Assembly: GCF_014652535.1 (NCBI RefSeq)
Contig: NZ_BMYZ01000003.1
Span: 1-64,000, forward strand
Direction of reading: 5' to 3'
Source: Cellvibrio zantedeschiae
GTDB taxonomy: Bacteria > Pseudomonadota > Gammaproteobacteria > Pseudomonadales > Cellvibrionaceae
DNA: 64,000 bases
In this document: in pieces, positions 23,946 through 39,024 of the stretch
How positions within the stretch are numbered: the stretch's first letter is position 1
How the letters are laid out: each line of letters starts with the position of its first letter
The notes under the pieces: model-generated
What the model was told of the DNA's origin: nothing
The model's input: the letters and a program-made list of their open reading frames with translations, nothing else
The model's database searches: none
Made by a program: the position numbers and the translations under genes

Positions 23946-24140
23946 TTTCGCCTCTTGGCGAATCACTTTTCTTTGCTTCGCCAAAGAAAAGTAATCAAAA
24001 GAAAAGCGACCCTATGGCTTTGTTTTTCCTGCGCGCTTCAGAAAATTGGCGTCGTTCCGGTGCGACATCCGTGTCGCATCGTCACTCAAACGCACATCCT
24101 GTGCGTTTGCCGTCAATTTTCTTCCAGTGCTCGGCAAAGC
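23946..24140 (+). repeat. Dispersed structured repeat, family A copy 1 (full length)
   Basis: Head: CGCC/GGCG mini-hairpin, then an 11-base stem ACTTTTCTTTG/CAAAGAAAAGT. Body: outer stem 24041-24051 with 24111-24121, enclosing hairpin 1 (24061-24067 with 24072-24078) and hairpin 2 (24087-24096 with 24100-24109, loop TCC). It is related to copies at 37.8-38.0 kb and 38.8-38.96 kb, and the head also to 36.38 kb. It fills the gap between the oxidoreductase and the TIM-barrel gene. Confidence 0.85.
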
Positions 24141-24177
24141 CATAAGGGAAGTGAACATCAAAAGCTAAAAGCAAAAA

Positions 24178-25242
24178 CTATTTCAAACCCAAAATACGAC
24201 GATTCGCTGCGTGATCTGTACCACCGCTTGCAAAATCATCAAACGCGCGTTCAGTGACTTTAATAATATGTTGCGCGATAAATGGAGCGCCTTCTGCTGC
24301 ACCAACTTCTGGATGCTTCAAGCAGCATTCCCATTCCAACACCGCCCAACCTTCATAATTGTATGCAGCGAATTTTGAGAAAATTTGTTTGAAGTCCACT
24401 TGGCCATCGCCGAGAGAACGGAAGCGACCAGCGCGATCAACCCATGACTCATAACCGCCGTACACACCTTGTTGTGCAGTTGGATTAAATTCCGCATCTT
24501 TAACATGGAACATTTTAATGCGGTCGTGATAGCGATCGATAAACGCCAAATAATCGAGTTGTTGCAAAACAAAGTGCGATGGGTCGAACAAAATATTGCA
24601 GCGTGGATGATTGTCTACGGCTTTCAAAAAGCGCTCGAAAGTTGCACCGTCATGCAAGTCTTCACCAGGGTGAATTTCGTAGCAAACGTCAACGCCTACT
24701 GCATCGAACGCATCCAAAATTGGTTTCCAGCGTTTTGCCAATTCACCAAAACCTGCATCGACCAAACCAGCAGGGCGCTGTGGCCACGGATACAAATAAG
24801 GCCACAACAAAGCACCAGAAAAAGTCGCGTGCGCTTTCAAACCTAAATTTTTACTCGCCTTGGCGGCCAACATTAATTGCTCTACTGCCCATGCCTGGCG
24901 AGCGGTTGGGTTACCGCGTACAGATTCAGGAGCGAAGCCGTCAAACATTTCATCATAAGCCGGGTGAACGGCTACTAACTGACCTTGTAAATGGGTGGAT
25001 AACTCGGTGGGAACCAAACCGTGTTTGGCTAAAGTCGCCAGAAACTGTGAGCAGTATTCAGTGCTGTTTGCAGCTTGCTCAAGGTCGAACACGCGCTTGT
25101 CCCAAGTAGGGATTTGCACACCTTTAAAACCCAGGCTTGCCACCCAACCAGCAATGCTATCAAGACTGTTAAATGGAGCTTTATCGCTTAAAAATTGCGC
25201 CAGGAATATGGCTGGACCCTTAAGAGTTTTCATGGTTTTCAC
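24178..25242 (-). CDS. TIM-barrel sugar phosphate isomerase/epimerase-like protein
   Basis: 354 residues of the xylose-isomerase-like / AP-endonuclease-2 barrel superfamily. Landmarks are FKGVQIPTWDKRVFDL, GLKAHATFSGALLWPYLYPW, VCYEIHPGEDLHDG, CNILFDPSHFVLQQLDYLAF and IKMFHVKDAEF, which place the Glu, Asp and His metal ligands of the family. Substrate unknown. It is the promoter-proximal gene of a probable three-gene sugar unit with the Gfo/Idh/MocA oxidoreductase and MFS transporter. Confidence 0.88.
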   Translation of the reverse strand: MKTMKTLKGPAIFLAQFLSDKAPFNSLDSIAGWVASLGFKGVQIPTWDKRVFDLEQAANSTEYCSQFLATLAKHGLVPTELSTHLQGQLVAVHPAYDEMFDGFAPESVRGNPTARQAWAVEQLMLAAKASKNLGLKAHATFSGALLWPYLYPWPQRPAGLVDAGFGELAKRWKPILDAFDAVGVDVCYEIHPGEDLHDGATFERFLKAVDNHPRCNILFDPSHFVLQQLDYLAFIDRYHDRIKMFHVKDAEFNPTAQQGVYGGYESWVDRAGRFRSLGDGQVDFKQIFSKFAAYNYEGWAVLEWECCLKHPEVGAAEGAPFIAQHIIKVTERAFDDFASGGTDHAANRRILGLK

Positions 25243-25492
25243 CCTTTTATCTTATAAATATGAATCGTCATTATGACTATAAGCACAGCGGCTTACAACA
25301 CGCGTTTTGCCTTAGCGGCCACAAGTGAAACCTAGACCAGAAGACACAAAAATAGTTGCCAGATGGGGCGAACCCAAGCCAAAGATGCGTTTTATAACAC
25401 GCAGCTTCGGTCAGGAAAATAAACTCTTGGTAGATTGGGGTGAACTTTGCAAATCTTGAGAAACCTGGCCAAGTTTTGGCCTATCAGATGGC
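25243..25492. other. Intergenic region, little recognisable
   Basis: About 250 bases between the TIM-barrel gene and the terminator of the OmpA-family gene. It should contain the promoter of the sugar unit, but I see no convincing -35/-10 pair. A short perfect palindrome GTCAT-T-ATGAC (25267-25277) lies 25 bases before the start codon and could be an operator. Confidence 0.3.
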
Positions 25493-25517
25493 AAAAAAGG
25501 CCTCATTTGGTGAGGCC
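25493..25517 (-). terminator. Rho-independent terminator of the OmpA-family gene
   Basis: On the minus strand a seven-base perfect stem GGCCTCA/TGAGGCC with a five-base loop is followed by six T. It lies 25 bases beyond the stop codon. Confidence 0.9.
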
Positions 25518-25541
25518 TGCAGGATGAAACTTTACTTAAGA

Positions 25542-27023
25542 TTACTGTAAGCGCTTAACCAACTCGACGCGTCGATTTTTTTGCTTGCCCGCCTCACTGG
25601 TGTTGTTACCCGCCGGTGCGTAAGGCCCAACACCTTGGGCCTGCAATCGGGCAGCCGGAATTTGGTAGGTTTTGACCAACTCATTTACCACCGCAGTAGC
25701 GCGCTGGCGCGATAGCTCTAAATTTGCAGCGCCCGCCCCCGTATCGTCGGTGTGGCCCACAACGTAGAGCAACAAATCTTTATTTTTAGTGAGCAGCTGG
25801 GCGATAGCGTCAAGAGTTGGTTTTGATTCAGGCTTAACAACTGATTTACCTGTATCAAAATAAATTCCATAAATAAGTGCTTTACCGTCAGCATCAATTT
25901 GTTGTTTCAAGCCATCGGCATCGACTTTAATTAAACCTGTAACAACTCCTTTTTGTTGCAAAATTAATTGTTCCACGCCAACTTCACTTTCATAAGCGCC
26001 GACAAAAATCGCAACATAAATATCACCAGCATCAGAAGCTTTTTTGGCAAGCACGTAATAAGGTTTGCGATACCAGTTATACACCGTGTTATCCATTGAA
26101 ACTTTATCACCCACTTTACGAATCGCCTCTTCACTTCCGCATTCAGCCAACTCACACTTGGACAAAATGCTAAAGCCGGCCTTGCTCAAAGCTTGTTTGT
26201 AATTTTCAAAAACCTTAAGACTTGAAACATCTTGAATGGTATAAACATGACGCGATAGATCACCCGTTAAATTTAATGGTGTGCGATCTGCAGCATTAGG
26301 TGCAACAGGAATGACTACAGTTTCAGTATCTACATGATGTGATTTTCGCAAATAAGCATTAGGGTAGCGCGCAAACAATTTATGGTCTTTGGCCAATTCC
26401 CTGGCATCCGTTTTATCTGCAGCTTCAGGTACAGGAGCTTTATTGGCATAAGCTGCATCAATTTTAATTAAATTATTTTCCAGAGGTTTAGCCTCCAAAA
26501 TAACTTGCTGCACAGCCACTTCATTATCATAAGCTCCCACGAACCATGCGCCATATATTTTAATTCCATTAGCGCCTTGTTTTTCGGCAACCATGTAATA
26601 GGGCTTTTGTTTATAGTTATAAACCGTATCTTCATTTGATACTAATCCACCCAACTCTTCAGCTTGATCTTCAGTTCCGCACGCATTCAACTGACAGGAA
26701 AATATAATATTGAAACCAAGTTTTTTAACGGCCGCCGCGTAGTTTTCGTAAACTTTTAAGCTTGAAACATCCTTGATGCGATAAAAATGACGCGACAAAT
26801 CGCCCTTTACATCCAAGGTTGAATATTTATAAGGTTTACTGCTGACATTAATAATGGAGGTGGGAATTTGGAAAGGCTCATAGGCCTGAACAATTGTTTT
26901 GCGAATTTCAGCACCGGGATAGCCCGCAATCAGCGGATGATCTTCACGCTCGGAACCAGCAAAACTTGTCACTGAAAAAGTCGCGGCCAGCAATGCAAAG
27001 ACTGTAAGGTATTTATTCAGCAT
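25542..27023 (-). CDS. OmpA-family protein with two tandem DUF4892-like domains
   Basis: 493 residues. Signal peptide of about 20 residues (ending SFAG). Two homologous repeats follow, about 22-190 and 205-360; both show LSRHxYxIKDVSSLKVxENY, a Cys-x4-Cys block (SCQLNACGTED and KCELAECGSEE), and TVYNxxxKPYYxxA. The C-terminal OmpA/MotB peptidoglycan-binding domain (about 380-493) has FDTGKSVVKPESKPTLD, VVGHTDDTG and NRRVELV. Likely a periplasmic or outer-membrane protein tied to peptidoglycan. Start ATG 27023 (MLNKYL) has GAGGG before it. It has its own terminator. Confidence 0.85.
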   Translation of the reverse strand: MLNKYLTVFALLAATFSVTSFAGSEREDHPLIAGYPGAEIRKTIVQAYEPFQIPTSIINVSSKPYKYSTLDVKGDLSRHFYRIKDVSSLKVYENYAAAVKKLGFNIIFSCQLNACGTEDQAEELGGLVSNEDTVYNYKQKPYYMVAEKQGANGIKIYGAWFVGAYDNEVAVQQVILEAKPLENNLIKIDAAYANKAPVPEAADKTDARELAKDHKLFARYPNAYLRKSHHVDTETVVIPVAPNAADRTPLNLTGDLSRHVYTIQDVSSLKVFENYKQALSKAGFSILSKCELAECGSEEAIRKVGDKVSMDNTVYNWYRKPYYVLAKKASDAGDIYVAIFVGAYESEVGVEQLILQQKGVVTGLIKVDADGLKQQIDADGKALIYGIYFDTGKSVVKPESKPTLDAIAQLLTKNKDLLLYVVGHTDDTGAGAANLELSRQRATAVVNELVKTYQIPAARLQAQGVGPYAPAGNNTSEAGKQKNRRVELVKRLQ

Positions 27024-27259
27024 ATTAAGTTCCCTCATGACGTAATGTAAATAACACGCGACAACCACCGCATCAAACGGAGGCTAGACTAGCGAAATTT
27101 TCTTAACAGTATGTGAATAATTTACATGCTCTTTTGCAATTGTGAACGCAGGCACGCTTTTTATCCTGTGTCTTCATGGTTATAATTGCGCCACGTCACA
27201 AGCAGACCAACCTAAAGTTTTTGACCTACCAATAGCACTACCCTCAGGGACAGATCATA

Positions 27260-28039
27260 ATGATAAAAATTTTCAGCTTCGTGTGTATCCCGTTTATTAT
27301 CCTAGCCATTTTTCTAAGTATTTTTATACCACTCAACCACGCTATCTTTAGCACCATTAATCATGCACTGCCCTTTAAAGCACTTTGGATGACCATTACC
27401 AACATAGGTGACGCGACTTTTTTAAGCTGCGCCTTGTTGATAGCTTTGCATAATCACAAACGACTATTAACAAACGCTGTGATTTGCGGAGTTTTTATTC
27501 ATTATACAATTAAATTTACCAAAAATATTTTTGCCGTACTTCGCCCTGAACATACATTAGACCTTACTAACCTGATTACGCTCGGCCCCGCATTAAAGCT
27601 CGACAATTACGCAATGCCATCAGGCCATACCGCTAGTGCTTTCATGGCGGTTATTTTTATCGCTTCCGCTTATCAATTGCGCAGCTGGAAACTATGGCTA
27701 CTAATTAGCTATGCATGCCTGGTAGGAATTTCACGCATTGCCGTTGGCGCCCATTGGCCAGCCGACGTCTTTGCTGGTGCAGTTATTGGTATATTTTTCG
27801 GATTACTTTGTACACATGAAAAATGGAATATCACTCATATCGCCGTACAATATTTAACGCTCGCGCTTTATCTTCCCTTTATTTATATTGCGATTCACCG
27901 CGTAAAATCTATACATGATGCCACCAGCTTAATTAATGAAGGTGCTATGGTTTTAGCGGGTATTTTAGGGCTAGCTATTTGGTTGTTAAGTGTAAAATCC
28001 CACTTCAATAAAAAAACCCCGCTACTCACTACTGAATAG
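27260..28039 (+). CDS. PAP2-superfamily membrane phosphatase
   Basis: 259 residues with about six transmembrane helices. All three phosphatase motifs are visible: K-x6-RP (KNIFAVLRP, about 90-98), PSGHT (about 121-125) and SRIAVGAHWPADV (about 158-170) with the catalytic His and Asp. Typical activities are dephosphorylation of undecaprenyl pyrophosphate or phosphatidylglycerol phosphate; which applies is not decidable here. Divergent from the OmpA-family gene; the stop codon lies inside the following terminator stem. Confidence 0.9.
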   Translation: MIKIFSFVCIPFIILAIFLSIFIPLNHAIFSTINHALPFKALWMTITNIGDATFLSCALLIALHNHKRLLTNAVICGVFIHYTIKFTKNIFAVLRPEHTLDLTNLITLGPALKLDNYAMPSGHTASAFMAVIFIASAYQLRSWKLWLLISYACLVGISRIAVGAHWPADVFAGAVIGIFFGLLCTHEKWNITHIAVQYLTLALYLPFIYIAIHRVKSIHDATSLINEGAMVLAGILGLAIWLLSVKSHFNKKTPLLTTE

Positions 28040-28044
28040 CGGGG
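28011..28044 (-). terminator. Terminator of the outer-membrane barrel gene, overlapping the PAP2 stop
   Basis: CCCCGCTA (28017-28024) and TAGCGGGG (28037-28044) form an eight-base stem; on the minus strand it is followed by a T-tract. The PAP2 stop codon TAG is part of the stem. Confidence 0.8.
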
Positions 28045-28066
28045 CTTATTGATCAAGATAAATCAA

Positions 28067-28645
28067 TTAGAAATGATAAGTTGCACCAATGGTTACTGCA
28101 GACAACTTGGTGTCATCCCATTTTGCAAATTGGCTGTACTCAGCACGCAATGCAATTTGTGGAGTAATTTTGTAACTTGCACCAACACCTAACAGAGCTT
28201 TGGTTTTTGATTCGGAATCAGAATCGCTCCAGCTACTGTTGCCGCTAGTTTCAACTGAATCATAATCTACATCTATTTTAGCCACACCTACGCGGCCAAA
28301 CAGACTGAAGTCTTCGCTGATTGGCAAGCTACCAACAACCGAAGCTTGCAATGCGGTAGCGCTCGTTTTATCGCGATAGTTATAGTTGATTCCTGCCTCT
28401 GTATAACTGCCACGATCAGAAACACTACCTAAATCACGATATGCTAATTCAACAGCAAAAAACTTATTAATATCGAAGCCAGCACCAAATGAATAGCTGG
28501 TGTCACTTTTACTGAAGGTATAATCGTCGCCAGCGTCAACCTCCACCTTACCGCTACCTACATCGCCTAGCACGTAAAAATTATCTGCCATGGCCGGCAA
28601 AGTAAATGCACCCAACACACATGCTGCTAATAATTGCTTTTTCAT
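28067..28645 (-). CDS. Small outer-membrane beta-barrel protein (OmpA-like porin fold)
   Basis: 192 residues from MKKQLL. Signal peptide cleaved after PAMA (about residue 20). Eight alternating amphipathic strands separated by polar loops and a C-terminal strand ending in phenylalanine (ATIGATYHF) identify an eight-stranded barrel. The outer loops are rich in Ser, Asp and Lys (WSDSDSESKTK). No ligand assigned. It faces the PAP2 gene and has its own terminator. Confidence 0.85.
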   Translation of the reverse strand: MKKQLLAACVLGAFTLPAMADNFYVLGDVGSGKVEVDAGDDYTFSKSDTSYSFGAGFDINKFFAVELAYRDLGSVSDRGSYTEAGINYNYRDKTSATALQASVVGSLPISEDFSLFGRVGVAKIDVDYDSVETSGNSSWSDSDSESKTKALLGVGASYKITPQIALRAEYSQFAKWDDTKLSAVTIGATYHF

Positions 28646-28808
28646 AAAATATTCCTTAATTGCTTCAGATGAAAAGTCGAAATACATTTTATGTATAAAT
28701 GTATTGCAGCGAACTTTAACAATCGGGAATGAATTTAACCTGAATGCATTTTTCGTTTAAATTTGCATAAACAAAATAAGATCACAAATCAACCAGATGT
28801 TAATTTGA

Positions 28809-29315
28809 TTACAAGTCCAGCAATTTATATTTTTCTTTATGGGCCAAGAGCATTTTTTGATAGGTCTTATTGTTGCGAGCCTTTTGCCACACTTCATAAA
28901 AGATATTGGCGCTTTCAGCTTTGATCAGATCTTCATCTTTTGGTAACTGCGAACGACCATGTGCGCCGCTTTGTGATTTTTTATCTGCAGGAACAGGGCC
29001 GTCATATTTTTTGCCACTTTTATGATTCGCGTAACGACGACTGCGGGTATAGCCCATTTGCAAAAATTTCCTCGCCATATCCATTCCAACAAAATCTTTT
29101 TGTTGTTTGTAAGCGAGAAAAAGTTGGTAGATTTTTGCAGCCGATTTTTTTGCAATATCTGGCGTTTTAAATCGCCAATGAGGAAGAATTTCGCTTTTAT
29201 ATGGCTCTACCAGCAGAACACCCTGCTCGCCGATTCCAGTGCGATACAACTCTGGATGCGTTCGCAAATCGAGGCTTTTGTAATCCAGCGAGTAATCGAA
29301 TTTTGCGAAAGGCAT
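28809..29315 (-). CDS. DUF4385-type protein of unknown function
   Basis: 168 residues, basic, with no signal peptide. The N-terminal part begins DYSLDYKSLDLRTHPELYRTG, and the middle has ILPHWRFKTPDIAKKSA and a lysine-rich GKKYDG stretch, resembling proteins annotated DUF4385. The function of that family is not known to me. Start at MPFAKFDY (29315); an ATG two codons upstream is possible. It is a monocistronic unit on the minus strand between the barrel gene and the GH55-like gene. Confidence 0.7.
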   Translation of the reverse strand: MPFAKFDYSLDYKSLDLRTHPELYRTGIGEQGVLLVEPYKSEILPHWRFKTPDIAKKSAAKIYQLFLAYKQQKDFVGMDMARKFLQMGYTRSRRYANHKSGKKYDGPVPADKKSQSGAHGRSQLPKDEDLIKAESANIFYEVWQKARNNKTYQKMLLAHKEKYKLLDL

Positions 29316-29418
29316 TATCAATTCCTGTTAGTTGATCTGTATTAACAGGAGACAATTGCTTCGCTTGTCGGTTGCATCAAGTGAATGCTGATTAACTTTA
29401 TTGATGTGAGTTAGCGAA

Positions 29419-29445
29419 GGCATGCTGAGTATTTATCAGCATGCC
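29419..29445. repeat. Perfect 10-bp inverted repeat between genes
   Basis: GGCATGCTGA and TCAGCATGCC with a seven-base loop. There is no T-tract on either side. It lies 31 bases past the stop of the GH55-like gene (minus) and about 100 bases upstream of the next gene, so it could protect the mRNA 3' end or be an operator. Confidence 0.6.
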
Positions 29446-29476
29446 ATTCCTCACAATCGTTATTTAGCTCTCAGCT

Positions 29477-32455
29477 TTACAGAGCAATGGAGTAAAGCGC
29501 GTGGTGCGCAAGAATGAACAACGTCTTCTTATCCTTGCCACCAATCACCAACTGGGTAGGACGATCAGGCACGTTAATTTGATTGATCAATTTGCCGTCT
29601 GGTGCATAGACAAAGACTTGGCCATTCGCGACATAAACTCGCCCATCCTGCCCAACCGCAACACTTTCACCACCGCGTTCTGCAAACATCTTAAGGTCAG
29701 TTACAACGCCTCCAGTGCCGACCACACCGTGATAAGTACGATTCTCTGATGAATTATTCAGGAACACGCGCTCACCCACTTTGGCTGTCACCAAACCCAT
29801 AGTGTCCATGGTATCCGAGAAGCGCCAATCACCTTGGCGGAAAGTGCGGAACGCAGGCAACACAAGGCTGCCATCCGGCGACACATATTCACGCGCTTTG
29901 GGCGTGCCCATGCCCTTGATGAATTGCTCAGCCAAGGTTGAATAACGGTAAGTGACGTAATCGAGCTGATCCTGGAACTCGCCATCGTTTTTCCAAACAT
30001 TGCCCGGCAACGCAACCTGTACATTGGGTCGAGCTACTGCAGCGGTAGGCTGGATGATGTCGATTTTATCGAACGGAGTATCTGGCTTGAACGCATATAC
30101 CGTGATCTCGGAGCCTTGGGGCGACATAACCATTACGTTGCCGGATTTATCGATTGCAAGGTTGACCGGATCAAGCGTGTTGTCACGCACAATTTCCAGG
30201 CCTTTTGTTGGTGTCCAGCGGTAGATACGTTGGAAGTATCGCTCCACAAAATAGAGCGCTCCGTCCGGCGCGACAGCCGCACCCGATATTGAATAAAAGC
30301 TATCAGCCAATTTCTGGATGGGTGCGGCAGTGTAGAGCGGCGCAACAGGTTCAGTCTTCGGCATCTTATCGGTCACGTCGAAGACCGCAAATTCGCGCTC
30401 ACGTATATCCCAACCCGCAGTTACATTGCGAATAGCGTTTTCAAACGGAAATTTGCTCGCGCGCAAATAAGGTGCGCAGCCGTTTTCGTCGCACATCGCA
30501 AATCCGCTTTCTGCATTTGAGTGGAGGTTGCGGAAACGAATATCCGTCGAGTTTTGCAGACGCACGGCAAAAGCATTTGGCTTGGGCGAGCGAGTCACGC
30601 GGTACGCGTGGTAATTGGCAAAAAGAATGTTGCGTGAATTGCGCACATCAAGACTGTTCGCATCAGAGCTAATGCGCACTTCTTCCTCGGTTTGAGGAGC
30701 CAAGAACTCCCAGTTCTCAACGCCATCCAAAACGATTTCATTGCGGAAATGGTGTTCGGTAGACAGCTCGTAAACGTGGCCGGGCGTTTTGGTGTTAGAT
30801 ACATAGAAACCAGCGTGTGCAGCTTCATGCGGAGTCCAAATGTCTGCAAAGGTACCGCCGCCGCCATCCGTAATCCAAATACTGGGGTACTGCCCGTCAT
30901 CGCGCCCTTTAACCGGCTGATCGCGTTGATCGCGCGGTGTGCCGCTACCGCCCTGAATCTTAACGTCATCCACCAGCGAATCCGCACCTGCTTTCCACAA
31001 CAAACCCACCGCGCGTGGATTGGTAACGCCGGTATAAATACCAATGCCACTTACAATAGCGTTGCCGCCTTTAGCACTTTCTACCAAGGCTTTAGGCGTA
31101 CCAAGACCGGCGTATGCGGGAGAATTCTCTGGAATAATCAGTTGCGTTTGAGCAGGGTGCAAGCCAACCAACACCGTATCTTTTTTCAATTTCAGAGTAT
31201 CGTTAACGATGTAGTTGCCTTGTGGGAAGTAGACAACTTTGTGCGAATCTATAGCGCGCTGAATAGCGGCGGTATCGTCTGTTTTACCATCACCTTTTGC
31301 ACCGGTATCACGTACGCTAAACCATGCTGTAGTTGAGGGGAGTGGACGAATGGCACGCTTTGCGGCTGGCATGCTGTTGAGCGGTTCAGCTTGCCAGTTG
31401 GTTTTGATCTGCCCCATTTGACGCGGGTCAACCAGCGTCAGGCCATAATTAAATTCTTTAATGCGGTAGCCTTTGCCCACGCCCTCAATCGTTTTGCCGC
31501 TGTCGCGGAAGCGCGCAAAAGTCGGCACATTGGTCGCCAACGCATTCTCGAAACCAATTTGTGTGAAAACACTATTCTCAGCGCTAATTACCACCGCGGC
31601 TTTGGAAACGTTGTTGAAACGAACATCCTTGCCCCACAGTGAATCTGAGTAACCCTCATCAATATCAATTCCCACAGGAACATTGCTGATGGAAACATTC
31701 ACAAGGGTGAGATCAACTTCATGTTCGCGAATGGCAGCTTCGCGCTGACCATCGAAAGAACTATCAATCAAGGTGAACTGCCATGCGGGAGAGGTCTTTT
31801 CGGTAAGGATGCCGTAGCGCCCGCCATGGAAGTGAACATTCTCCATCACATTGCCGGCGAGATAGACGCCCGCCAAGCCCGAACCGAGATTGAAATCCAT
31901 ATGCGACAAGAACGCGTGCTGTGCAACGTGGAAGCGCGCGGCTACGGCACCTGCGTTGCCTTGGCCAATTTCAATATCGATATTCGCCATGGCGGAGTAG
32001 AAGGTGCTTGAGTTTGCATCAAACAATTTATCGTTAAAGGGCACCACAGTCTTAGGCGGGAATGGTGGCTGCTTATTGCCATATTGGTCGTTGCCGACAA
32101 AGGTAAACATGGTTGCCACGCCTTCGCCAAAACCAGGAGTGTTGTCACCCAGCACAATCACCGGGCGCGTCTTACCCACACCAAAGAGTCGTACCGCTGG
32201 ATGCATGATGATCGTTCGAGAGATGAGGTAGCGACCCGATGGAAGAAACACAACACCACCCCGCCACTTATCCACAACAGCGGAATCAATTGCACGTTGG
32301 ATCGCAGCACTGTCATCGGTACGGCCATCTCCAACAGCCTTGACCACAACAGCGTTGGGATCTTTTGGCATAGTCTCCAAAACCGAGTTTGTCGCCGCCT
32401 GCGCGGACAACGACATCCCCAGCAGCCAAGCTGCCGTTACTAACTTTAGATTCAT
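29477..32455 (-). CDS. GH55-like double beta-helix protein with C-terminal beta-propeller
   Basis: 992 residues from MNLKLV; signal peptide ends SAQA (about residue 20). Two pectate-lyase-3-type right-handed beta-helix domains follow, each opened by the same signature (GDGRTDDSAAIQRAIDSA at about 42-59 and GDGKTDDTAAIQRAID at about 395-410). This twin arrangement is typical of GH55 exo-beta-1,3-glucanases. From about residue 730 a repetitive part (GAAVAPDGALYFVERY, GQDGRVYVANGQVFVYAPDG) looks like an NHL/SMP-30 beta-propeller. Usual GH55 enzymes are shorter, so this tail is an addition. The start is supported by the signal peptide; 55 upstream codons are rejected. Paired operator-like sites lie upstream. 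Confidence 0.8.
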   Translation of the reverse strand: MNLKLVTAAWLLGMSLSAQAATNSVLETMPKDPNAVVVKAVGDGRTDDSAAIQRAIDSAVVDKWRGGVVFLPSGRYLISRTIIMHPAVRLFGVGKTRPVIVLGDNTPGFGEGVATMFTFVGNDQYGNKQPPFPPKTVVPFNDKLFDANSSTFYSAMANIDIEIGQGNAGAVAARFHVAQHAFLSHMDFNLGSGLAGVYLAGNVMENVHFHGGRYGILTEKTSPAWQFTLIDSSFDGQREAAIREHEVDLTLVNVSISNVPVGIDIDEGYSDSLWGKDVRFNNVSKAAVVISAENSVFTQIGFENALATNVPTFARFRDSGKTIEGVGKGYRIKEFNYGLTLVDPRQMGQIKTNWQAEPLNSMPAAKRAIRPLPSTTAWFSVRDTGAKGDGKTDDTAAIQRAIDSHKVVYFPQGNYIVNDTLKLKKDTVLVGLHPAQTQLIIPENSPAYAGLGTPKALVESAKGGNAIVSGIGIYTGVTNPRAVGLLWKAGADSLVDDVKIQGGSGTPRDQRDQPVKGRDDGQYPSIWITDGGGGTFADIWTPHEAAHAGFYVSNTKTPGHVYELSTEHHFRNEIVLDGVENWEFLAPQTEEEVRISSDANSLDVRNSRNILFANYHAYRVTRSPKPNAFAVRLQNSTDIRFRNLHSNAESGFAMCDENGCAPYLRASKFPFENAIRNVTAGWDIREREFAVFDVTDKMPKTEPVAPLYTAAPIQKLADSFYSISGAAVAPDGALYFVERYFQRIYRWTPTKGLEIVRDNTLDPVNLAIDKSGNVMVMSPQGSEITVYAFKPDTPFDKIDIIQPTAAVARPNVQVALPGNVWKNDGEFQDQLDYVTYRYSTLAEQFIKGMGTPKAREYVSPDGSLVLPAFRTFRQGDWRFSDTMDTMGLVTAKVGERVFLNNSSENRTYHGVVGTGGVVTDLKMFAERGGESVAVGQDGRVYVANGQVFVYAPDGKLINQINVPDRPTQLVIGGKDKKTLFILAHHALYSIAL

Positions 32456-32619: not shown

Positions 32620-32678
32620 TAAATGGCGATAGAAAATCTTTTTAGCGATTGTGGCTATTATTTTTAAATGGCGTGCAA

Positions 32679-33286: not shown

Positions 33287-33334
33287 ATTGACTTTTTTCC
33301 TTAAGAGGCGAATCATAGGTCAATATACATGACC
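33278..33334. promoter_or_regulatory. Two inverted repeats, likely MarR-type operators
   Basis: GTCAAT-CAT-ATTGAC (33278-33292) spans the start codon of the MarR gene, and GGTCA-N7-TGACC (33318-33334) lies between the two divergent genes. Both share the GTCA/TGAC half-site. Position suggests autoregulation and control of the aminotransferase. Confidence 0.55.
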
Positions 33335-33360
33335 AAATTTATTCAAACAACGAGTCCAGT

Positions 33361-34551
33361 ATGCCTTCGTCTCCACAACTCTCCGAGCGCATCTCCCGCT
33401 TAACCTCCTCATTGGTACGCGAAATTCTTGCCGCTGCACAAGCGCCGGGCATGATTTCCTTTGCGGGCGGCTTGCCCAGTGCGGAAGCCATGCCGCTCTT
33501 GCGCGATACGCCCCACTCACATGATTGGTTGAGCCCGGTGTTTCAACAGTACGGACAAAGTGAAGGCGAACCGATTTTGCGCGCGCGTTTGGCCGATTGG
33601 TTAGCCGAATGCGGTATGCAGGTATCGCCGCATCAAACGCTGGTGCTTTCCGGTTCGCAACAAGGTATAGACCTGGCCGCAAAATTATTTGTTGACCCGG
33701 GCACGCCTTTGCTCTGCGAAGCGCCCACCTATTTGGCTGCGCTACAAGCTTTTCAATTGTTCGGTGCAAACTGTTTGGGATTGCCTTTAACCAATGACGG
33801 TATTGATCCCGAGTTGCTTGCGCAAATAATTGAAACATATCAGCCGCGCGCAATTTATTTAATCCCTACTTTTCAAAATCCATCCGGTCATTGTTACAGC
33901 GCGGAAAATCGCCGCGCTATTGCTGAAGTGCTCGATCATTATGCTTTGCCGTTAATTGAAGATGAGCCTTATCGTGAACTCATGTACGACAATGTAGATC
34001 GCACGCCGATTTGCAGTTTGCTCAAGCGTGCTCCCTGGATTTATTTGGGTAGCTTTTCCAAAACATTGTGGCCCGGTTGGCGCGTAGGATTTTTAGCCGC
34101 GTCTGATGATTTATTTCCGCATTTGTTGCGATTAAAACAAGCGGGCGATTTGCACACCAATCGCCCCGGCCAAATTCGCGTTGCCAATTGGTTGGCTTGC
34201 GATGAACGCCACAAAGATTTAGCGCACCTGCGTGAAACTTATCGCAAAAAACGCGATGCAATGAACGACGCACTCACCAATACCTTTGGAGATTTAGCCG
34301 ATTGGGAAATTCCTGCCGGTGGGTTATTTTTTTGGTTGAAGTTGCGCAACGCAATTGACACGCGACCGCTGTTGAAAATTGCGTTGGAAAATAATGTAGC
34401 GTTTATGCCGGGCGAAGCTTTTTATCCTGCGAGTGGGCAGCCTGTATTCGGCACTATGCGGCTGAATTTTAGCCACGCCAATTCAACCGATATGAGAAAA
34501 GGATTAACGACTCTAGCCAGGATAATTGAGAATAATAAGCCCGACGTTTAA
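33361..34551 (+). CDS. PLP-dependent aminotransferase, class I/II (LysN/2-aminoadipate type)
   Basis: 396 residues of fold-type I. Motifs are ISFAGGLPSAEAMP near the N-terminus, the PLP-ring contact region GSQQGIDLAAKLFVDPG, FQNPSGHCYSAENRRA, the Asp in IEDEPYRELMYD, and the Schiff-base lysine in GSFSKTLWPGWRVGF (about residue 230). It resembles the enzymatic half of MocR proteins but without the DNA-binding domain. The amino donor or acceptor is not evident. Divergent from a MarR regulator; its stop overlaps the convergent Yip1-like gene by four bases. Confidence 0.9.
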   Translation: MPSSPQLSERISRLTSSLVREILAAAQAPGMISFAGGLPSAEAMPLLRDTPHSHDWLSPVFQQYGQSEGEPILRARLADWLAECGMQVSPHQTLVLSGSQQGIDLAAKLFVDPGTPLLCEAPTYLAALQAFQLFGANCLGLPLTNDGIDPELLAQIIETYQPRAIYLIPTFQNPSGHCYSAENRRAIAEVLDHYALPLIEDEPYRELMYDNVDRTPICSLLKRAPWIYLGSFSKTLWPGWRVGFLAASDDLFPHLLRLKQAGDLHTNRPGQIRVANWLACDERHKDLAHLRETYRKKRDAMNDALTNTFGDLADWEIPAGGLFFWLKLRNAIDTRPLLKIALENNVAFMPGEAFYPASGQPVFGTMRLNFSHANSTDMRKGLTTLARIIENNKPDV

Positions 34552-35396
34552 GTCGGGCAGTTTCTCATAATACTGGACACCAAAATTCCAGCGTTAATCA
34601 TACTTACCAGAAGCGATACAACAAACACCGCTACCGCAGTGAGCACAATAATCGCAATTGATTTTCCTGTGCCTACGCCAGCAGCAGTTGTGTATGAAAA
34701 CCATGCTTTAAGCAACCAAAGAAGCGCAACCAAGGCCACAAAAGCCTGCATAACAAATGCGATTTTGGGCAAGGTTCTTTGCATAGCGGCAAGGTAAATT
34801 TCCTGCTGACTTTTAAACTCTGGCGATTTTTCAACAACATCTTGCACAGCAGAAAAATTTCCCGTCTTTAAATCAATTGAACAGAACTGACTGTGTATCT
34901 GCGGCATAAATGCTTTGGTGAATTTTTCAGATTCAATCCATGCTTTCGCAAAAAATGGATCGGCCATTGCAATATTGCTAATTGCATTAGCAAAAACTAA
35001 CAGCACCAAACTACAACCGCAAAAATAAAAGACCAATGTGAAAAAAATATGCGGGTCTGCCAATTTTCCAAAAAGCTTTAAAAAACCCATCGCAATTGCG
35101 CAGGCACCCACCAAATAAAAAAGCATTAACAGCGCCTCTGAACCCGTGCGGATAAACTCATTTTCATTGGCAGGCAGCACTTTTAATGGGCTAGTTACTT
35201 CCGGCAATGCGTAAGAAAGGAATAGCGAAATTAGGAATGAGGTAACAATAAACGCAACGGACTTTTCAAATGCTGGCGATGCATCTGTTGCGGCAAGTTT
35301 TTCCGTTACGAACCTTTTGGGGTGCAGCAGACAGCTAATGAATTGACTCAGGTACCCCGGTAACTCGGTGATGACCTTTTCGAGATAAGATTTCAT
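34548..35396 (-). CDS. Yip1-like integral membrane protein
   Basis: 282 residues. A short N-terminal amphipathic segment containing LLHPKRF is followed by about five transmembrane helices (around 50-68, 95-115, 125-150, 215-240 and 245-270), with a large polar loop at roughly 155-210. This pattern matches bacterial Yip1/DUF1282-type membrane proteins; function unknown. The start at MKSYLEK has AGGAA seven bases before it. Convergent with the aminotransferase. Confidence 0.7.
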   Translation of the reverse strand: MKSYLEKVITELPGYLSQFISCLLHPKRFVTEKLAATDASPAFEKSVAFIVTSFLISLFLSYALPEVTSPLKVLPANENEFIRTGSEALLMLFYLVGACAIAMGFLKLFGKLADPHIFFTLVFYFCGCSLVLLVFANAISNIAMADPFFAKAWIESEKFTKAFMPQIHSQFCSIDLKTGNFSAVQDVVEKSPEFKSQQEIYLAAMQRTLPKIAFVMQAFVALVALLWLLKAWFSYTTAAGVGTGKSIAIIVLTAVAVFVVSLLVSMINAGILVSSIMRNCPT

Positions 35397-35510
35397 GCAG
35401 TGTTCCTTCAGTAGCAAGTTGAGTTGGCTAGCGAATCAGGATTCTATAGCAGTCCGCCTAAAGGGCGCGAGTGAAATTAGTTAATCACACACCAACTTAA
35501 ACAATACATC

Positions 35511-36227
35511 CTATTGTTTACGGCGGCGCATCAGCCAAACCCCAGCTATAGCAAATGAAATTAACGCGGTAATTATTTTTTCGGGGGAAAGAGACTTTTT
35601 ACCAAACTGTTTATATCGGGCGGGAATCTCGCCCTGCCCCACAATTACATTAAGCATTACCGGCTGTATACCTTTGACCCGATTGAAACTGGTCATCAAT
35701 CTTACATCCCGTTTACCATCGGTTTGGTATTCTTTGACGATAGTGCCCGTAAGATATGTACCTTCATTTCTACTGATTGCTTCATAGGCTGCATACATGT
35801 CAGCCCCAAACATCGCTTTTAATTCTTCTGGCTTACGCTCACCAACGTTTGCCGTTAGTTGATCCCCCAAACCTTTGGTCGCCTTAACGATTTCCATATT
35901 TTTTGGTTTGAAAACCACAACGGAATCTCCCATGGAAAGCGGAATCATTTCAAATGAAGAGTCGAGCACCATTTCTCCTTCAGGTTTCGCATCTGCCGAC
36001 ACACCCACCATTTGATATATAACCCATACAGGTTGTTTAGGATCTATGGATAGCAAATCTATCGACAAGGATTTTTGTGAGCCAGGGATTAAAGGAGTAA
36101 CCAATTGGCTTGTGGCAAGAACAGCCGCCTGCGCAGATAGCATTAGGAAAAGCTGCAGTGTTATTACAGAAATTAAACTGGAAAGGTTTTTTATTGTTAA
36201 CTTCACTTTGATTCCTTGCTTTAGCAA
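35511..36227 (-). CDS. Exported protein with C-terminal TM and arginine cluster
   Basis: 238 residues. An N-terminal signal sequence (about 15-35, ending AQA) is followed by a soluble periplasmic part of unknown fold, then SPEKIITALISFAIAG and WLMRRRKQ: a short polar motif, a single hydrophobic helix and a terminal Arg/Lys cluster. That tripartite tail resembles PEP-CTERM-type sorting signals, though the Pro-Glu-Pro motif is not present (SPEK instead) and no exosortase lies in this window. An ordinary C-terminal membrane anchor is equally possible. Confidence 0.65.
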   Translation of the reverse strand: MLKQGIKVKLTIKNLSSLISVITLQLFLMLSAQAAVLATSQLVTPLIPGSQKSLSIDLLSIDPKQPVWVIYQMVGVSADAKPEGEMVLDSSFEMIPLSMGDSVVVFKPKNMEIVKATKGLGDQLTANVGERKPEELKAMFGADMYAAYEAISRNEGTYLTGTIVKEYQTDGKRDVRLMTSFNRVKGIQPVMLNVIVGQGEIPARYKQFGKKSLSPEKIITALISFAIAGVWLMRRRKQ

Positions 36228-36456
36228 ATTGTTTGTTGGTAGCGATGGGGACTTAGCGCAATATTGGGGAACGCTTATTCTGCATGAGTTTTTTTCGATC
36301 TGATGAGAAGTAATTCGCTGATATAGTAGAATTATTTAAACGTTTTTTAAGATGAAGGGAATTGAGTTCAAATCGAACATTTATTTCGCCTCTTGGCGAG
36401 CTCCTTTTATTTACTTGCATAAAGAAAAAGGAACCACAAAATTGCAGGAATGATAG
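36228..36456. other. Intergenic region with partial repeat
   Basis: It holds the truncated family A repeat (36383-36436) and the unassigned promoter of the upstream exported-protein gene. Nothing else recognised. Confidence 0.4.
36383..36436 (+). repeat. Dispersed structured repeat, family A copy 2 (head only)
   Basis: Matches the head of copy 3 (37831-37882) almost base for base: TTTCGCCTCTTGGCGAG, then an imperfect stem around loop CTTGCA. The body with the two TCC hairpins is absent, so this is a truncated copy just past the GH105 stop codon. Confidence 0.75.
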
Positions 36457-37623
36457 TTAATTTTCCATTACCGAAGCCGCCATTAGCACACCAATATAAC
36501 CGTGTGGATAATGTGCTCCCTCTGCAACAGGAACACTCACGGGGCGAATTGCTACATAACCGTCGTAATTAATTTGGCTGCCCATAGGCGGCGCCACAGA
36601 ATTAATTTGCGGACCACCGTCATTAAAGGTTGCAACTTTGGTTTTTATCCCAGACCAACCTTTTTCCGCAATATCATGATAAGCCGCATCAATCAATTTT
36701 AAATTTACGCCTTTTTGCAAAGCATAAACAATCATGGCTGAGCCGCTGGTTTCGGGGTAATTGAGTGGTTTGTCATAAGCATCCAACACTTGATACCACA
36801 AACCATCTTGTGGATTTTGCGAAGCCTTTATACCTTGCGCCAAACTTTGGAAAGCCAACAAAATATTATTGTATGCGGGGTGATCTTTAGGAAAATATTC
36901 CAACACATCCACCAAGGCCATGGAATACCAGCCCGTTGTGCGCGACCAAAATTGCGAGGACGTGCCCGTAATTTTATTAGCCCAAGGTTTTTCTTTATCG
37001 TAATTCCATGCGTGATAAGGCAAGTTCGCTTTTATGTTGTAGGATCGTTCAGCAGCTAACAAGATCTGTTTGGCCGCAACATCCAACAACTCTTTTTCAT
37101 TAGCGATAACGGCGTAGTGAACCAGAAACGGATAAGCCATGTACAAGCCGTCCACCGACATTACATTTTTATATTTTTCGTCGGTTTTGTGCCAGTAGCC
37201 ACCTTCTGGCGTTTTATTAAATTGGGAGGGTTTGATAGGCGTACCAATCAAATGGTCACGCATGGTTTTGGCTGCAAGTAGATATTTCTTATCGCCCGTT
37301 TGTTCATATAAAAATAAACAAATAACGCCAGGGTGCATACCATCCAAAGTCAGCAATAGGCCTTTAATGCTGCCATCCGCATTTACGAATTGGTCAGCAT
37401 AGGCTTTGATGTACCTGAGGTATTTTTTATCGTGATTTTTTAAATAGATTTTTTCGATGCCGTGCAAAATTGCACTATTGGAGTGATCCCAGCCGTGATG
37501 GGTCATTGCGTCGATTGTTGGGGTGTAGCGCTTAACAATTGAACCGGCCAACCAGTTTCCGTAATTTACTTCAGCCATTGCCAAGCTAGGCAATAGCCAT
37601 AACACACATAAAATGATACGCAC
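36457..37623 (-). CDS. GH105 unsaturated rhamnogalacturonyl/glucuronyl hydrolase
   Basis: 388 residues with an N-terminal signal peptide (ends SLAMA, about residue 17). It forms an (alpha/alpha)6 barrel of GH88/GH105. Landmarks are LTLDGMHPGVICLFLYEQTGD, MSVDGLYMAYPFLVHYA carrying the likely catalytic Asp, WSRTTGWYSMALVDVLEYFP and ETSGSAMIVYALQKGV. Such enzymes act after pectate or rhamnogalacturonan lyases on unsaturated oligosaccharides. The signal peptide places it in the periplasm. It has no CAZyme neighbours in an operon; repeats lie on both sides. Confidence 0.88.
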   Translation of the reverse strand: MRIILCVLWLLPSLAMAEVNYGNWLAGSIVKRYTPTIDAMTHHGWDHSNSAILHGIEKIYLKNHDKKYLRYIKAYADQFVNADGSIKGLLLTLDGMHPGVICLFLYEQTGDKKYLLAAKTMRDHLIGTPIKPSQFNKTPEGGYWHKTDEKYKNVMSVDGLYMAYPFLVHYAVIANEKELLDVAAKQILLAAERSYNIKANLPYHAWNYDKEKPWANKITGTSSQFWSRTTGWYSMALVDVLEYFPKDHPAYNNILLAFQSLAQGIKASQNPQDGLWYQVLDAYDKPLNYPETSGSAMIVYALQKGVNLKLIDAAYHDIAEKGWSGIKTKVATFNDGGPQINSVAPPMGSQINYDGYVAIRPVSVPVAEGAHYPHGYIGVLMAASVMEN

Positions 37624-37770
37624 TCAGATGTCTCCCTAATTCACTAATATAAATTGAGTGATAGAGACAGATGACCAAAGCCGGGGGTTACAATTATTTT
37701 TAGTTGGGGGATGATAGATGAGCAAAAGATGGATTGAAAGTAGTTTTAGGTTTGGCGACTTAACTTTCTT

Positions 37771-37799
37771 ATCGTCATCCCCGCAGGGAATCCAGTGAC
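37771..37799 (+). repeat. REP-like unit, family B
   Basis: ATCGTCATCCCCGCAGGGAA followed by TCCAGTGAC, a shortened form of the GTCATCC...GATCCAGC unit found repeatedly between 37.7 and 43.9 kb. Confidence 0.6.
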
Positions 37800-37830
37800 T
37801 TTGTTTTGCATCTCTAATTTTATAGATTTC

Positions 37831-38010
37831 ATTTCGCCTCTTGGCGAGTTCCTTTTCTTTACTTGCATAAAGAAAAGGAACCAAAAGAAAGTGCACCCTA
37901 CGTCTTCGTGTTTCCGTGCGCTTCGGAAAATATCCGTCGTTCCGACGCGGCATCCTTGCCGCGTAGTCACTCAAACAAACGTCCTGTTTGTTTGACGGAA
38001 ATTTTCCTCC
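37831..38010 (+). repeat. Dispersed structured repeat, family A copy 3 (full length)
   Basis: Head stem TTCCTTTTCTTTA/TAAAGAAAAGGAA (13 bases) around CTTGCA. Body: outer stem 37925-37938 with 37994-38007 (one mismatch), hairpin 1 ACGCGGCA/TGCCGCGT (37945-37952 with 37957-37964) and hairpin 2 CAAACAAAC/GTTTGTTTG (37972-37980 with 37986-37994). The arms differ from copy 1 by compensating base changes. Confidence 0.85.
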
Positions 38011-38027
38011 ACAAAAACGCAGGAGCA

Positions 38028-38074
38028 TTTTTGCACAGCGAAGCTGCCCGAAGGGTGAAGGCCATGGATGGCCT
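38028..38074 (+). repeat. 47-bp tail module, copy 1
   Basis: Begins TTTTGCACAGCGAAGCTGCC and ends in the hairpin GGCCAT-GG-ATGGCC. A copy differing at one base lies at 38978-39024 in the same orientation, although the neighbouring family A repeats are in opposite orientations. Confidence 0.8.
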
Positions 38075-38181
38075 GAATGAGTACTCGGCGAAGCGATAAG
38101 GGGGTGTAACAGCAAAAGCAAAAAAGCGGAGAGCCATTTTTTCACGAAGGTGAAACTTGGGAATAAGGCAAAAATCTACAT

Positions 38182-38221
38182 AAGTAGGGAATCGTCATCT
38201 TCGCGAAGCGGAGATCCAGCT
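38182..38221 (+). repeat. 40-bp REP-like unit, left inverted repeat of the GIY-YIG gene
   Basis: Begins AAGTAGGGAATCGTCATC and ends GATCCAGCT; 37 of 40 positions match the inverted unit at 38541-38580. It lies eight bases past the GIY-YIG stop codon. Confidence 0.8.
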
Positions 38222-38228
38222 TTTGTTC

Positions 38229-38516
38229 TTAAGTTATTCTCTCGTACAAGTCCAACCAATCAGGATTGCTAGCTTCGATTAGTTGTATTTTCTCTTCACG
38301 CCCAATTTTCTTAAGTGTTTTTTCACGAGCTATTGCAGATTCCATTGTTTCTGTTAGTTCGTAATACACTAAATTAGTGGCGTTATATTTTTTGGTGAAA
38401 CCTTCGGTTAGATGATTCTTATGTTGCCAAATACGCTGGGGTAAATTGCTGGTTACACCAATGTACAGTGTTCCATCTTTTTTGCTGGCGAGGATATATA
38501 CGGCAGGATTTTTCAA
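38229..38516 (-). CDS. GIY-YIG nuclease-domain protein
   Basis: 95 residues, a single GIY-YIG domain of the YhbQ/UvrC-like type: VYILASKKDGTLYIGVTSNL holds the two motif tyrosines, QRIWQHK the conserved Arg, and a later Glu lies in the ESAIAREKTLKK block. The start is the TTG at 38516, which gives MKNPAVYILA as in relatives and has AAGGA seven bases upstream. The frame is open 54 codons further, but that part is only repeat DNA. The gene is enclosed by 40-bp inverted repeats, suggesting it travels or spreads with them. Activity on DNA is inferred from the fold. Confidence 0.85.
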   Translation of the reverse strand: MKNPAVYILASKKDGTLYIGVTSNLPQRIWQHKNHLTEGFTKKYNATNLVYYELTETMESAIAREKTLKKIGREEKIQLIEASNPDWLDLYERIT

Positions 38517-38540
38517 TTCAAATTCCTTTTTAAAAGCAAG

Positions 38541-38580
38541 AGCTGGATCCCCGCTGCGCGAGGATGACGATTCCCTACTT
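38541..38580 (-). repeat. 40-bp REP-like unit, right inverted repeat of the GIY-YIG gene
   Basis: Inverted partner of 38182-38221 with three mismatches. Together they bracket only the GIY-YIG gene and its ribosome-binding site. Confidence 0.8.
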
Positions 38581-38594
38581 AATAAGATATAAGT

Positions 38595-38643
38595 GTGTTT
38601 CGTGTTTCGTGTTTCGTGTTTCGTGTTTCGTGTTTCGTGTTTC
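38595..38643. repeat. Heptamer tandem array, seven perfect GTGTTTC units
   Basis: 49 bases of perfect seven-base repeats upstream of the GIY-YIG gene. The unit is not a multiple of three, so it is unlikely to encode protein. Perfect identity suggests recent slippage. Confidence 0.95.
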
Positions 38644-38725
38644 GTAAAAATATAATCTAAAACCGTAAGCCAAATCAAACCTATTAAACGCAGACAGCTT
38701 TATCTATCACTATCGAGTTATATCC

Positions 38726-38765
38726 AAGCAGGGAGTCGTCATCCTCGCGCAGCGGGGATCCAGCC
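38726..38765 (+). repeat. REP-like unit, family B
   Basis: Begins AAGCAGGGAGTCGTCATCC and ends GGGGATCCAGCC; same orientation as 38182-38221 and very similar to it. Confidence 0.75.
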
Positions 38766-38795
38766 TTTGCTCTTTGCTCTTCATCCCATGCGAGC

Positions 38796-38958
38796 ACCCC
38801 GAGCACTAGAAGAAAATCGTTGGAAAACAAACAGGAAGTTTGTTTTAGTGACTACGCGACAAGGATGTCGCGTCGGAACGACAGCGATTTTCTGAAGCGC
38901 GCAGGATAAGGGGCGAACCGGGTCGCCTTTCTTTTGGTTACTTTTCTTTCGGCGAAGC
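38796..38958 (-). repeat. Dispersed structured repeat, family A copy 4 (inverted)
   Basis: Outer stem 38811-38822 with 38882-38893; hairpin 1 ACGCGACA/TGTCGCGT (38854-38861 with 38866-38873); hairpin 2 AAAACAAAC/GTTTGTTTT (38824-38832 with 38838-38846). The head is cut short at 38958. Closest to copy 1 in the parts outside the stems (TGCTCGG, GCGCGCTTCAGAAAAT). Confidence 0.85.
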
Positions 38959-38977
38959 ACAAAATTACAGGATAGTA

Positions 38978-39024
38978 ATTTTGCACAGCGAAGCTGCCCG
39001 AAGGGTAAAGGCCATGGATGGCCT
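38978..39024 (+). repeat. 47-bp tail module, copy 2
   Basis: Differs from 38028-38074 at a single base and lies in the same orientation. Confidence 0.8.

What the first reader, a model, noticed from the sequence alone, without database searches (positions are those of the whole stretch)
23946..39024. Dispersed repeat with covarying three-stem fold (four copies in 15 kb)
Seen directly: copies at 23946-24140, 37831-38010 and 38796-38958 (inverted) share an outer stem enclosing two hairpins with TCC-containing loops; a head-only copy lies at 36383-36436. Stem arms differ between copies but stay paired: hairpin 1 is TGCGACA/TGTCGCA, ACGCGGCA/TGCCGCGT or ACGCGACA/TGTCGCGT; hairpin 2 is CAAACGCACA/TGTGCGTTTG, CAAACAAAC/GTTTGTTTG or AAAACAAAC/GTTTGTTTT; the outer stem ends in TTG/CAA in one copy and TCG/CGA in another. 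Paired changes in all three stems point to selection on folded DNA or RNA, as in attC-like recombination substrates, REP/BIME elements or small RNAs. Such sequences may already sit in databases only as spurious translated frames.
Basis: seen in the sequence. Interest (0 to 1): 0.85.

Follow-up and report, generated by a model that had tools for sequence, protein, structure and literature searches.

The report
Dispersed repeats carrying CsrA-type RNA hairpins
A bacterial genome carries some thirty scattered copies of a short repeat that folds into a pair of hairpins resembling the binding site of the global regulator CsrA, and other repeats in this and related genomes carry a similar pair, which hints that mobile DNA has adopted a regulator's binding site.

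Summary
The window copies belong to a repeat (M1) with 31 full and 4 partial copies found in this genome. Its fold covaries strongly: 25 of 32 pairs show double-sided changes, and a model of it finds the fold in 14 of 96 genomes, multi-copy and patchy. It is not unknown: the copies hit Rfam RF01731 (TwoAYGGAY), one above the cut-off and two below, in one clan with CsrB. The loops, read on the GGA strand, are mostly C-AGGAN-G (CsrB-repeat type) and C-ANGGAU-G (CsrA SELEX type). Two other repeats (M2, M3) and the classic TwoAYGGAY elements of sister species carry a similar pair. In classic outer stems, mismatches on the GGA strand are 47 G.T against 3 A.C, so that strand is what folds. Against a cis-regulatory role: M1 ignores gene orientation, other repeats occupy the copy-1 site in relatives, and classic elements show no promoter or terminator signal. 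Best reading: mobile repeats built around a CsrA-binding hairpin pair; binding and role are inferred, the mobilising enzyme is unknown. New variant of a known kind.

The parts
23946..24140 (-). copy 1 of the repeat (M1), between two minus-strand genes (GFO/IDH/MocA oxidoreductase and AP_endonuc_2)
24028..24134 (-). M1 core of copy 1 (outer stem plus two GGA hairpins); RF01731 42.1 bits (cut-off 43) over 24026-24137
24087..24109 (-). hpA of copy 1, loop C-AGGAU-G
24061..24078 (-). hpB of copy 1, loop C-ACGGAU-G
24041..24048 (-). outer stem of copy 1, 3' arm on the GGA strand
24114..24121 (-). outer stem of copy 1, 5' arm on the GGA strand
23946..24012 (.). head hairpin of copy 1 with a mirror repeat (AAAGAAAAG...AAAAGAAA)
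   Evidence: reading as a triplex-type motif is by eye
36384..36438 (.). head-only copy
37832..38011 (-). copy 2 of M1, upstream of the GH88 gene and on its strand; RF01731 45.4 bits, above cut-off
37972..37994 (-). hpA of copy 2, loop C-AGGAC-G
37945..37964 (-). hpB of copy 2, loop C-AAGGAU-G
38010..38080 (+). second repeat family M2 (two further GGA hairpins) nested at the 5' side of copy 2, opposite orientation
38797..39060 (+). copy 3 of M1 including the nested M2; RF01731 37.9 bits over 38824-38880; right end by eye
38824..38846 (+). hpA of copy 3, loop C-AGGAA-G
38854..38873 (+). hpB of copy 3, loop C-AAGGAU-G
38958..39032 (+). M2 inserted in the loop of copy 3's head hairpin; 22 matches in the own genome

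Best explanation
The repeat (M1) is one member of a group of short interspersed, probably mobile repeats in Cellvibrionaceae-type bacteria. Its GGA strand folds into an outer stem holding a pair of CsrA/RsmA-type hairpins, GGA motifs 29 nt apart. Shown: the repeat, the covarying fold with a strand bias, loops that vary mostly where CsrA tolerates variation, a canonical CsrA gene in the genome, different repeats or none at one orthologous site, and nesting of one repeat in another. Inferred: that RNA from the GGA strand, made by read-through or antisense transcription, binds the CsrA dimer at both hairpins, and that this binding (titrating CsrA, or serving the element's own RNA) explains the conservation. 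How it moves is unknown.
For: RF01731 hits on the GGA strand for all three copies (45.4, 42.1, 37.9 bits, cut-off 43); clan CL00106 is shared with CsrB. hpA loops read CAGGA(A12/C9/T6)G in 27 of 31 copies, the CsrB repeat CAGGA(U/A/C)G; hpB reads ACANGGAUGU in 22 of 31, close to the SELEX site RUACARGGAUGU, and keeps GGA in 31 of 31 (both reference sites from passages of PMC7652899). In 54 classic elements, searched for GGA hexaloops (GGA thus fixed by the search), 48 have at least two; of 105 loops position 1 is A in 104, position 2 free (T65 G30 A7 C3), position 6 T in 89, closing pair C-G in 100. Covariation: and in eight other genomes. Strand: 47 G.T against 3 A.C in 52 outer stems, at many positions (binomial 4e-11 if cells were independent); M1 19 against 3 cells. 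M2 and M3 carry a similar pair. CsrA of the genome matches solved CsrA chains over 57 residues. Mobility: searches (different repeats or none at one site; empty sites), nesting.
Against: No binding, transcript or phenotype could be measured. M1 orientation to genes is random: 13 ++, 15 --, 7 convergent, 0 divergent of 35, partial copies included. Classic elements lie more often with the GGA strand antisense (18 -- against 6 ++ of 36 loci, some orthologous; p 0.02) and flip between species at the same locus. At classic elements promoter-like sites upstream in 1 of 50, as in the control, and no T-run after the stem in 50; around copies 2 and 3 promoter-like sites are 2 (2.7 expected) and terminator-like sites 5 (1.9 expected), one of them (38909-38930) after copy 3's core on the GGA strand. 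In the G003 orthologue of copy 1 hpA has lost GGA; 3 of 31 hpA loops lost it. A strict count finds both hairpins in 26 of 31 own copies and 30 of 42 in other genera. The G.T excess is weak in the other genera (32 to 18) and small in M2 (5 to 1). The opposite strand of copy 1 folds more stably. The stems are longer than in most SELEX ligands. A probable dedicated Csr sRNA exists elsewhere in the genome. G.T is also milder than A.C in single-stranded DNA (recalled), so the bias does not prove RNA.
Confidence: 0.57

Rival explanations
1. A mobile DNA element moved as folded single-stranded DNA (in the manner of IS200/IS605, REP/RAYT or attC): a recombinase reads the GGA hairpins on one strand, and the likeness to CsrA sites is coincidence or secondary.
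For: One strand folds; G.T tolerance fits ssDNA too (recalled). Of 14 M3-like units 8 sit right after CA (7 of these GCA) without target duplication visible by eye; M2 sits after GCA in the head loop of copy 3. Different repeats in either orientation at one site; no gene-strand bias for M1. M3 has GTAG before its second hairpin, as REPs do (by eye; the REP feature is recalled).
Against: G000 has one weak Y1_Tnp hit (26.1 bits), and G001, G015 and G018 have none yet carry M2 (1, 12 and 6 matches). Nothing in this model predicts the CsrA-like pattern of fixed and free loop positions. Other recombinase families were not searched.
Confidence: 0.28
2. Neutral palindromes: template switching copies one arm on the other (quasipalindrome correction, recalled), so stems stay perfect without function.
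For: Arms differ strongly between several orthologous loci yet stay paired; orientation flips are easy between inverted arms.
Against: Does not explain the constant loops nor 47 G.T against 3 A.C on one strand.
Confidence: 0.08
3. Each copy is a cis-regulatory CsrA site for the adjacent gene or a dedicated sRNA gene.
For: Copies 1 and 2 lie on the strand of the downstream gene; the Rfam type of RF01731 is cis-reg; a terminator-like site follows copy 3.
Against: No orientation preference of M1, different repeats or none at the orthologous site of copy 1, no promoter signal.
Confidence: 0.05

Closest known systems
TwoAYGGAY RNA (Rfam RF01731; PMC2864571, passages only)
   Same: Outer stem with two GGA-loop hairpins, tandem G.A in a stem, gammaproteobacteria; copy 2 passes the Rfam cut-off
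   Different: Window type has a 5-nt loop CAGGAN in hpA, GGA spacing 29, a 3' head hairpin, and 31 full copies in one genome; two of three window copies score below the cut-off
CsrB/RsmB sRNA (RF00018, same Rfam clan CL00106)
   Same: Loops CAGGA(U/A/C)G in hairpins (PMC7652899, passages)
   Different: Dispersed, both orientations, one hairpin pair per copy, no promoter signal seen
REP/BIME elements with RAYT transposases (features recalled)
   Same: Short extragenic hairpin repeats, dispersed, sometimes in inverted pairs
   Different: Covarying stems with near-constant GGA loops; one weak Y1_Tnp hit in the genome, none in three carriers of M2
BoxC / PIT / TM(ECO) triplex repeats (PMC4666352: abstract, two parts of the text and one section)
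   Same: The head hairpin has the pyrimidine-purine-purine mirror layout (by eye); BoxC-like repeats occupy the copy-1 site in sister genomes
   Different: Head is A-rich, not C/G-rich; the GGA hairpin pair is not part of the BoxC pattern given there

Membership tests
TwoAYGGAY RNA (RF01731) | score at or above the gathering cut-off of 43 bits | tested here: inconclusive
   45.4 (copy 2), 42.1 (copy 1), 37.9 (copy 3); 12 of 29 own-genome matches are over it, best 54.2
TwoAYGGAY RNA (RF01731) | two hairpins with A-Y-GGA-Y loops inside an outer stem | tested here: inconclusive
   fold and two GGA loops present; hpB is mostly ANGGAU, hpA is a 5-nt AGGAN loop
CsrA-binding RNA | GGA in hairpin loops with the CsrA consensus, sites in pairs | tested here: met
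   against the consensus in PMC7652899 (passages); stems longer than most SELEX ligands
CsrA-binding RNA | physical binding of CsrA/RsmA | not testable with these tools
   no experiment possible
CsrB/RsmZ sRNA gene | single gene with own promoter and terminator | tested here: not met
   35 copies, 4 of them partial; no promoter excess around copies 2 and 3, though one terminator-like site follows copy 3; classic relatives without signal; a separate candidate sRNA at C1:2432090-2432268
REP/BIME with RAYT | a RAYT (Y1_Tnp) gene in genomes that carry the repeat | tested here: inconclusive
   one weak hit in G000, none in G001, G015, G016, G018 of the genus; M2 present in G001, G015, G018
REP/BIME with RAYT | GTAG tetranucleotide next to the hairpin | not tested
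   seen by eye in M3; M1 not searched for it
attC of integrons | one site per gene cassette in an array | tested here: not met
   copies scattered over contigs C1, C2, C3 and C5
attC of integrons | core boxes and an integron integrase in the genome | not tested
   no search run

The most novel reading that the evidence does not exclude
Several unrelated mobile repeat families have converged on the binding site of a host global regulator: each carries a pair of CsrA hairpins that its own life cycle, or a genome-wide distributed CsrA sponge, depends on.
Probability: 0.25. Interest if true: 0.87.

Novelty: new variant of a known kind. Interest (0 to 1): 0.63.

Why it matters
TwoAYGGAY was listed in 2010 and treated in 2014 as a family of unknown function with a proposed CsrA link (PMC2864571 and PMC4333381, passages). 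Here it appears as an abundant interspersed repeat with covarying stems, and other repeats carry a similar hairpin pair. If these RNAs bind CsrA, mobile repeats can load a genome with regulator binding sites, which suggests a source for CsrB-like sponges and a test with CLIP-seq. If instead the folded strand is DNA, a recombinase that reads GGA hairpins awaits discovery.

Tried and rejected
Canonical sRNAs: RsmZ (RF00166) passes its cut-off in 0 of 34 genomes, CsrB (RF00018) in 0 of 21; a sub-threshold CsrB hit in G000 (26.2 bits) looks by eye like a real Csr sRNA, so the idea that the repeats replace a missing sponge was dropped. GacA-box pattern: no excess over the reversed control (116 against 130 per strand). 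Y1 transposase as mobiliser: presence does not follow M2. Viral contigs: no exact match to one classic-core pattern. Outer arms of the classic elements as a copy of the target: arms are not in the empty sites of the one locus looked at. Orthologous empty site for copies 2 and 3: none seen in the capped listing for 21 genomes. Head hairpin as a control for G.T against A.C (6 to 0): not valid, because my search pattern fixed one arm. Scripts gave nothing useful because of faulty patterns and timed out; one search replaced them. The orientation count mis-placed three loci; one search replaces it. Two of 54 classic copies (L135, L157) were dropped from the arm counts for short or poor arms; a group of short flank matches (L036, L140, L156) was not counted as orthologous. 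Paper searches (titles, abstracts' starts and some passages seen) showed no paper that describes TwoAYGGAY or CsrA hairpins as dispersed repeats; the library holds open-licence papers only.
Full report
What was checked. The window lies at G000:C3:1-64000 of a 4.27 Mb genome in 12 contigs. A search of the whole own genome with copy 1 gave 35 matches. An iterated profile, run only on the window and the 19 stretches fetched around those matches, gave 35 (31 full, 4 partial). A covariance model on the whole genome gave 33 at E up to 1e-4.

The fold. On the 31 full copies (A1) I wrote the structure by hand: an outer stem, hpA, and hpB with a basal extension. 25 of 32 pairs show double-sided changes; the covariation score is 0.369 against 0.143 shuffled (0 of 500) and at most 0.104 for slid structures; further pair types are 42 against 36.8 (14 of 500 reach it). 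The structure was derived from these sequences and related copies are not independent. So I also used the model on other genomes: 42 matches in 39 loci of eight genomes outside the genus give 92.2% paired cells and a score of 0.689 against 0.214 shuffled and at most 0.117 slid, while further pair types do not exceed the shuffles (65 against 63.8, 195 of 500). That alignment is fitted to the model and leans towards it. The basal extension is GUGAC/GGAAC with tandem G.A in most copies and Watson-Crick in a few divergent ones; tandem GAs in one stem are noted for TwoAYGGAY in PMC4333381 (passages).

What it matches. cmscan gives RF01731 TwoAYGGAY for all three copies on the GGA strand: 45.4, 42.1 and 37.9 bits, cut-off 43; in the whole own genome 29 matches, 12 over the cut-off. 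RF01731 and CsrB (RF00018) carry the same clan label CL00106. TwoAYGGAY was listed in 2010 as a probable RNA of human gut, gammaproteobacteria and Clostridiales (PMC2864571, passages); a CsrA-binding role was proposed in PMC4333381 (passages).

The loops. hpA loops with closing pair: CAGGAAG 12, CAGGACG 9, CAGGATG 6, CACGACG 2, CAAGAAG 1, CCGGACG 1 of 31; hpB has GGA in 31 of 31 and reads ACANGGATGT in 22. A strict count (stem of 4 or more, loop of 5 or 6) finds both hairpins in 26 of 31 copies, GGA spacing 29 in all 26; in the other genera 30 of 42, spacing 29 in 24, 28 in 4, 27 in 2. PMC7652899 (passages) gives the CsrB repeat as CAGGA(U/A/C)G and the SELEX site as RUACARGGAUGU, mostly in hexaloops with AC and GU paired, and calls the N positions of the RsmE site variable though they affect affinity; it also says most SELEX hairpins have four or fewer pairs, and ours are longer. 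The genome's CsrA matches solved CsrA chains over 57 residues; CsrA is found in 33 of 34 genomes.

Other repeats with a similar pair. M2 (22 matches in the own genome, 14 of 34 genomes) has an AGGA hairpin and an ANGGAN hairpin with changing stems: in 32 of 37 anchored copies both were found, with 28 and 27 distinct forms. M3 carries a TGCA-UGGA-UGCA hairpin and a GCAGGAGC hairpin; of 14 M3-like units seen, 8 follow CA (7 of them GCA), inside M1, M2 or a head hairpin, and 6 sit elsewhere, for instance in BoxC-like repeats. Many RF01731 hits of sister species are a further type ('classic'). I collected 54 copies; a search for GGA hexaloops found two or more in 48, and among 105 loops position 1 is A in 104 and the closing pair C-G in 100, with positions 2 and 6 varying (GGA itself is fixed by the search). 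Their outer stems are mostly 17-35 bp, nearly perfect, and most differ from one another (L157 has only 5).

Which strand. In 52 classic copies the outer stems hold 1284 Watson-Crick, 47 G.T, 3 A.C and 27 other cells on the GGA strand; G.T occurs in 29 of 52 copies and at many positions. M1 gives 19 G.T and 3 A.C cells, M2 5 and 1, the model-fitted set of other genera 32 and 18, a weak bias. Mutation alone should give both equally (inference), so one strand folds. Since G.T is milder than A.C in DNA as well (recalled), this does not separate RNA from single-stranded DNA. Folding energy does not help: for copy 1 the TCC strand folds better than the GGA strand (z -7.33 against -5.13).

Mobility and place. 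The copy-1 site was compared in 18 relatives: G003 has M1 in the same orientation, with hpA's GGA lost; G005 a different GGA element in the opposite orientation; G020 a BoxC-like repeat with M3 in it; G002, G004, G009 and G012 BoxC-like repeats; G001, G006, G008, G013, G014, G015, G016, G018 and G019 a short spacer with none; G007 and G011 other short sequences. A classic locus is filled in G012 and G014, filled in reverse with other arms in G009, empty in G001, G004 and G010, occupied by other sequence in G013 and broken by N in G002. Four of six orthologous groups show flipped elements. M1 copies by flanking ORFs (simple ORF calls, partial copies included): 13 with both genes on the GGA strand, 15 with both opposite, 7 convergent, 0 divergent. 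Classic elements, 36 loci: 18 opposite, 6 same, 8 divergent, 4 convergent. No promoter or terminator signal at 50 classic elements. Around copies 2 and 3: 2 promoter-like sites (2.7 expected), 5 terminator-like sites (1.9 expected), one just after copy 3's core on the GGA strand.

Distribution. The M1 model hits 14 of 96 genomes: G000 33, G003 11, G005 15, G017 12, G020 1 in the genus; G023 7, G038 1, G061 5, G062 38, G064 1, G067 17, G071 10 in the family; G075 1 and G087 1 beyond (with stricter filters that lose weak matches). The window's genus is therefore probably Cellvibrio or a near relative; that name is inferred.

Judgement. That a GGA-strand transcript would bind CsrA is likely from the loop rules; that this is why the fold is kept is less sure, since copies ignore gene direction and show no promoters. 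The rival that the folded strand is DNA in transit explains orientation and nesting better but not the loop pattern. On checking, the strand bias outside the classic elements proved weaker and GGA in the 105 loops proved fixed by my search, so I moved one point of confidence to the rival. I rate the finding as a new variant of a known kind: a TwoAYGGAY-like module that lives as an abundant repeat.

Noticed in passing
window 38229-38678 (-): GIY-YIG endonuclease ORF (Pfam PF01541) between copies 2 and 3, flanked by another multicopy inverted repeat (38174-38232, 38530-38588, 38726-38774; also 41516-41541); a similar stretch lies near M1 copies in G005 (C1:1349315) and a related one in G006 (C189:3868).
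   Followed up: partly
window 38595-38645: Perfect heptamer array GTGTTTC x 7.3 beside the GIY-YIG ORF.
   Followed up: no
window 23946-24012, 37832-37898, 38918-39060: Head hairpin with a mirror repeat (CTTTTCTTT / AAAGAAAAG / AAAAGAAA): by eye the layout of a class II intrastrand triplex motif, an A-rich analogue of BoxC.
   Followed up: partly
G000 C1:2432090-2432268 (-), L205: Probable dedicated Csr sRNA: sub-threshold CsrB hit (26.2 bits) with four CAGGATG and a terminator-like end, by eye.
   Followed up: partly
G000 C5:24909 (L100) and C2:272284-272436 (L101): Tandem M2 or M2-like units, making short arrays of GGA hairpins that resemble a CsrB layout.
   Followed up: no
L142/L143/L146, L127/L132/L147, L141/L152, L031/L033: Classic TwoAYGGAY elements at the same locus in different species are flipped, with arms that differ or are partly alike, yet well paired.
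   Followed up: partly
M3 copies, e.g. L101, L042, L044: GTAG stands before the second hairpin of M3, as in REP units (recalled).
   Followed up: no
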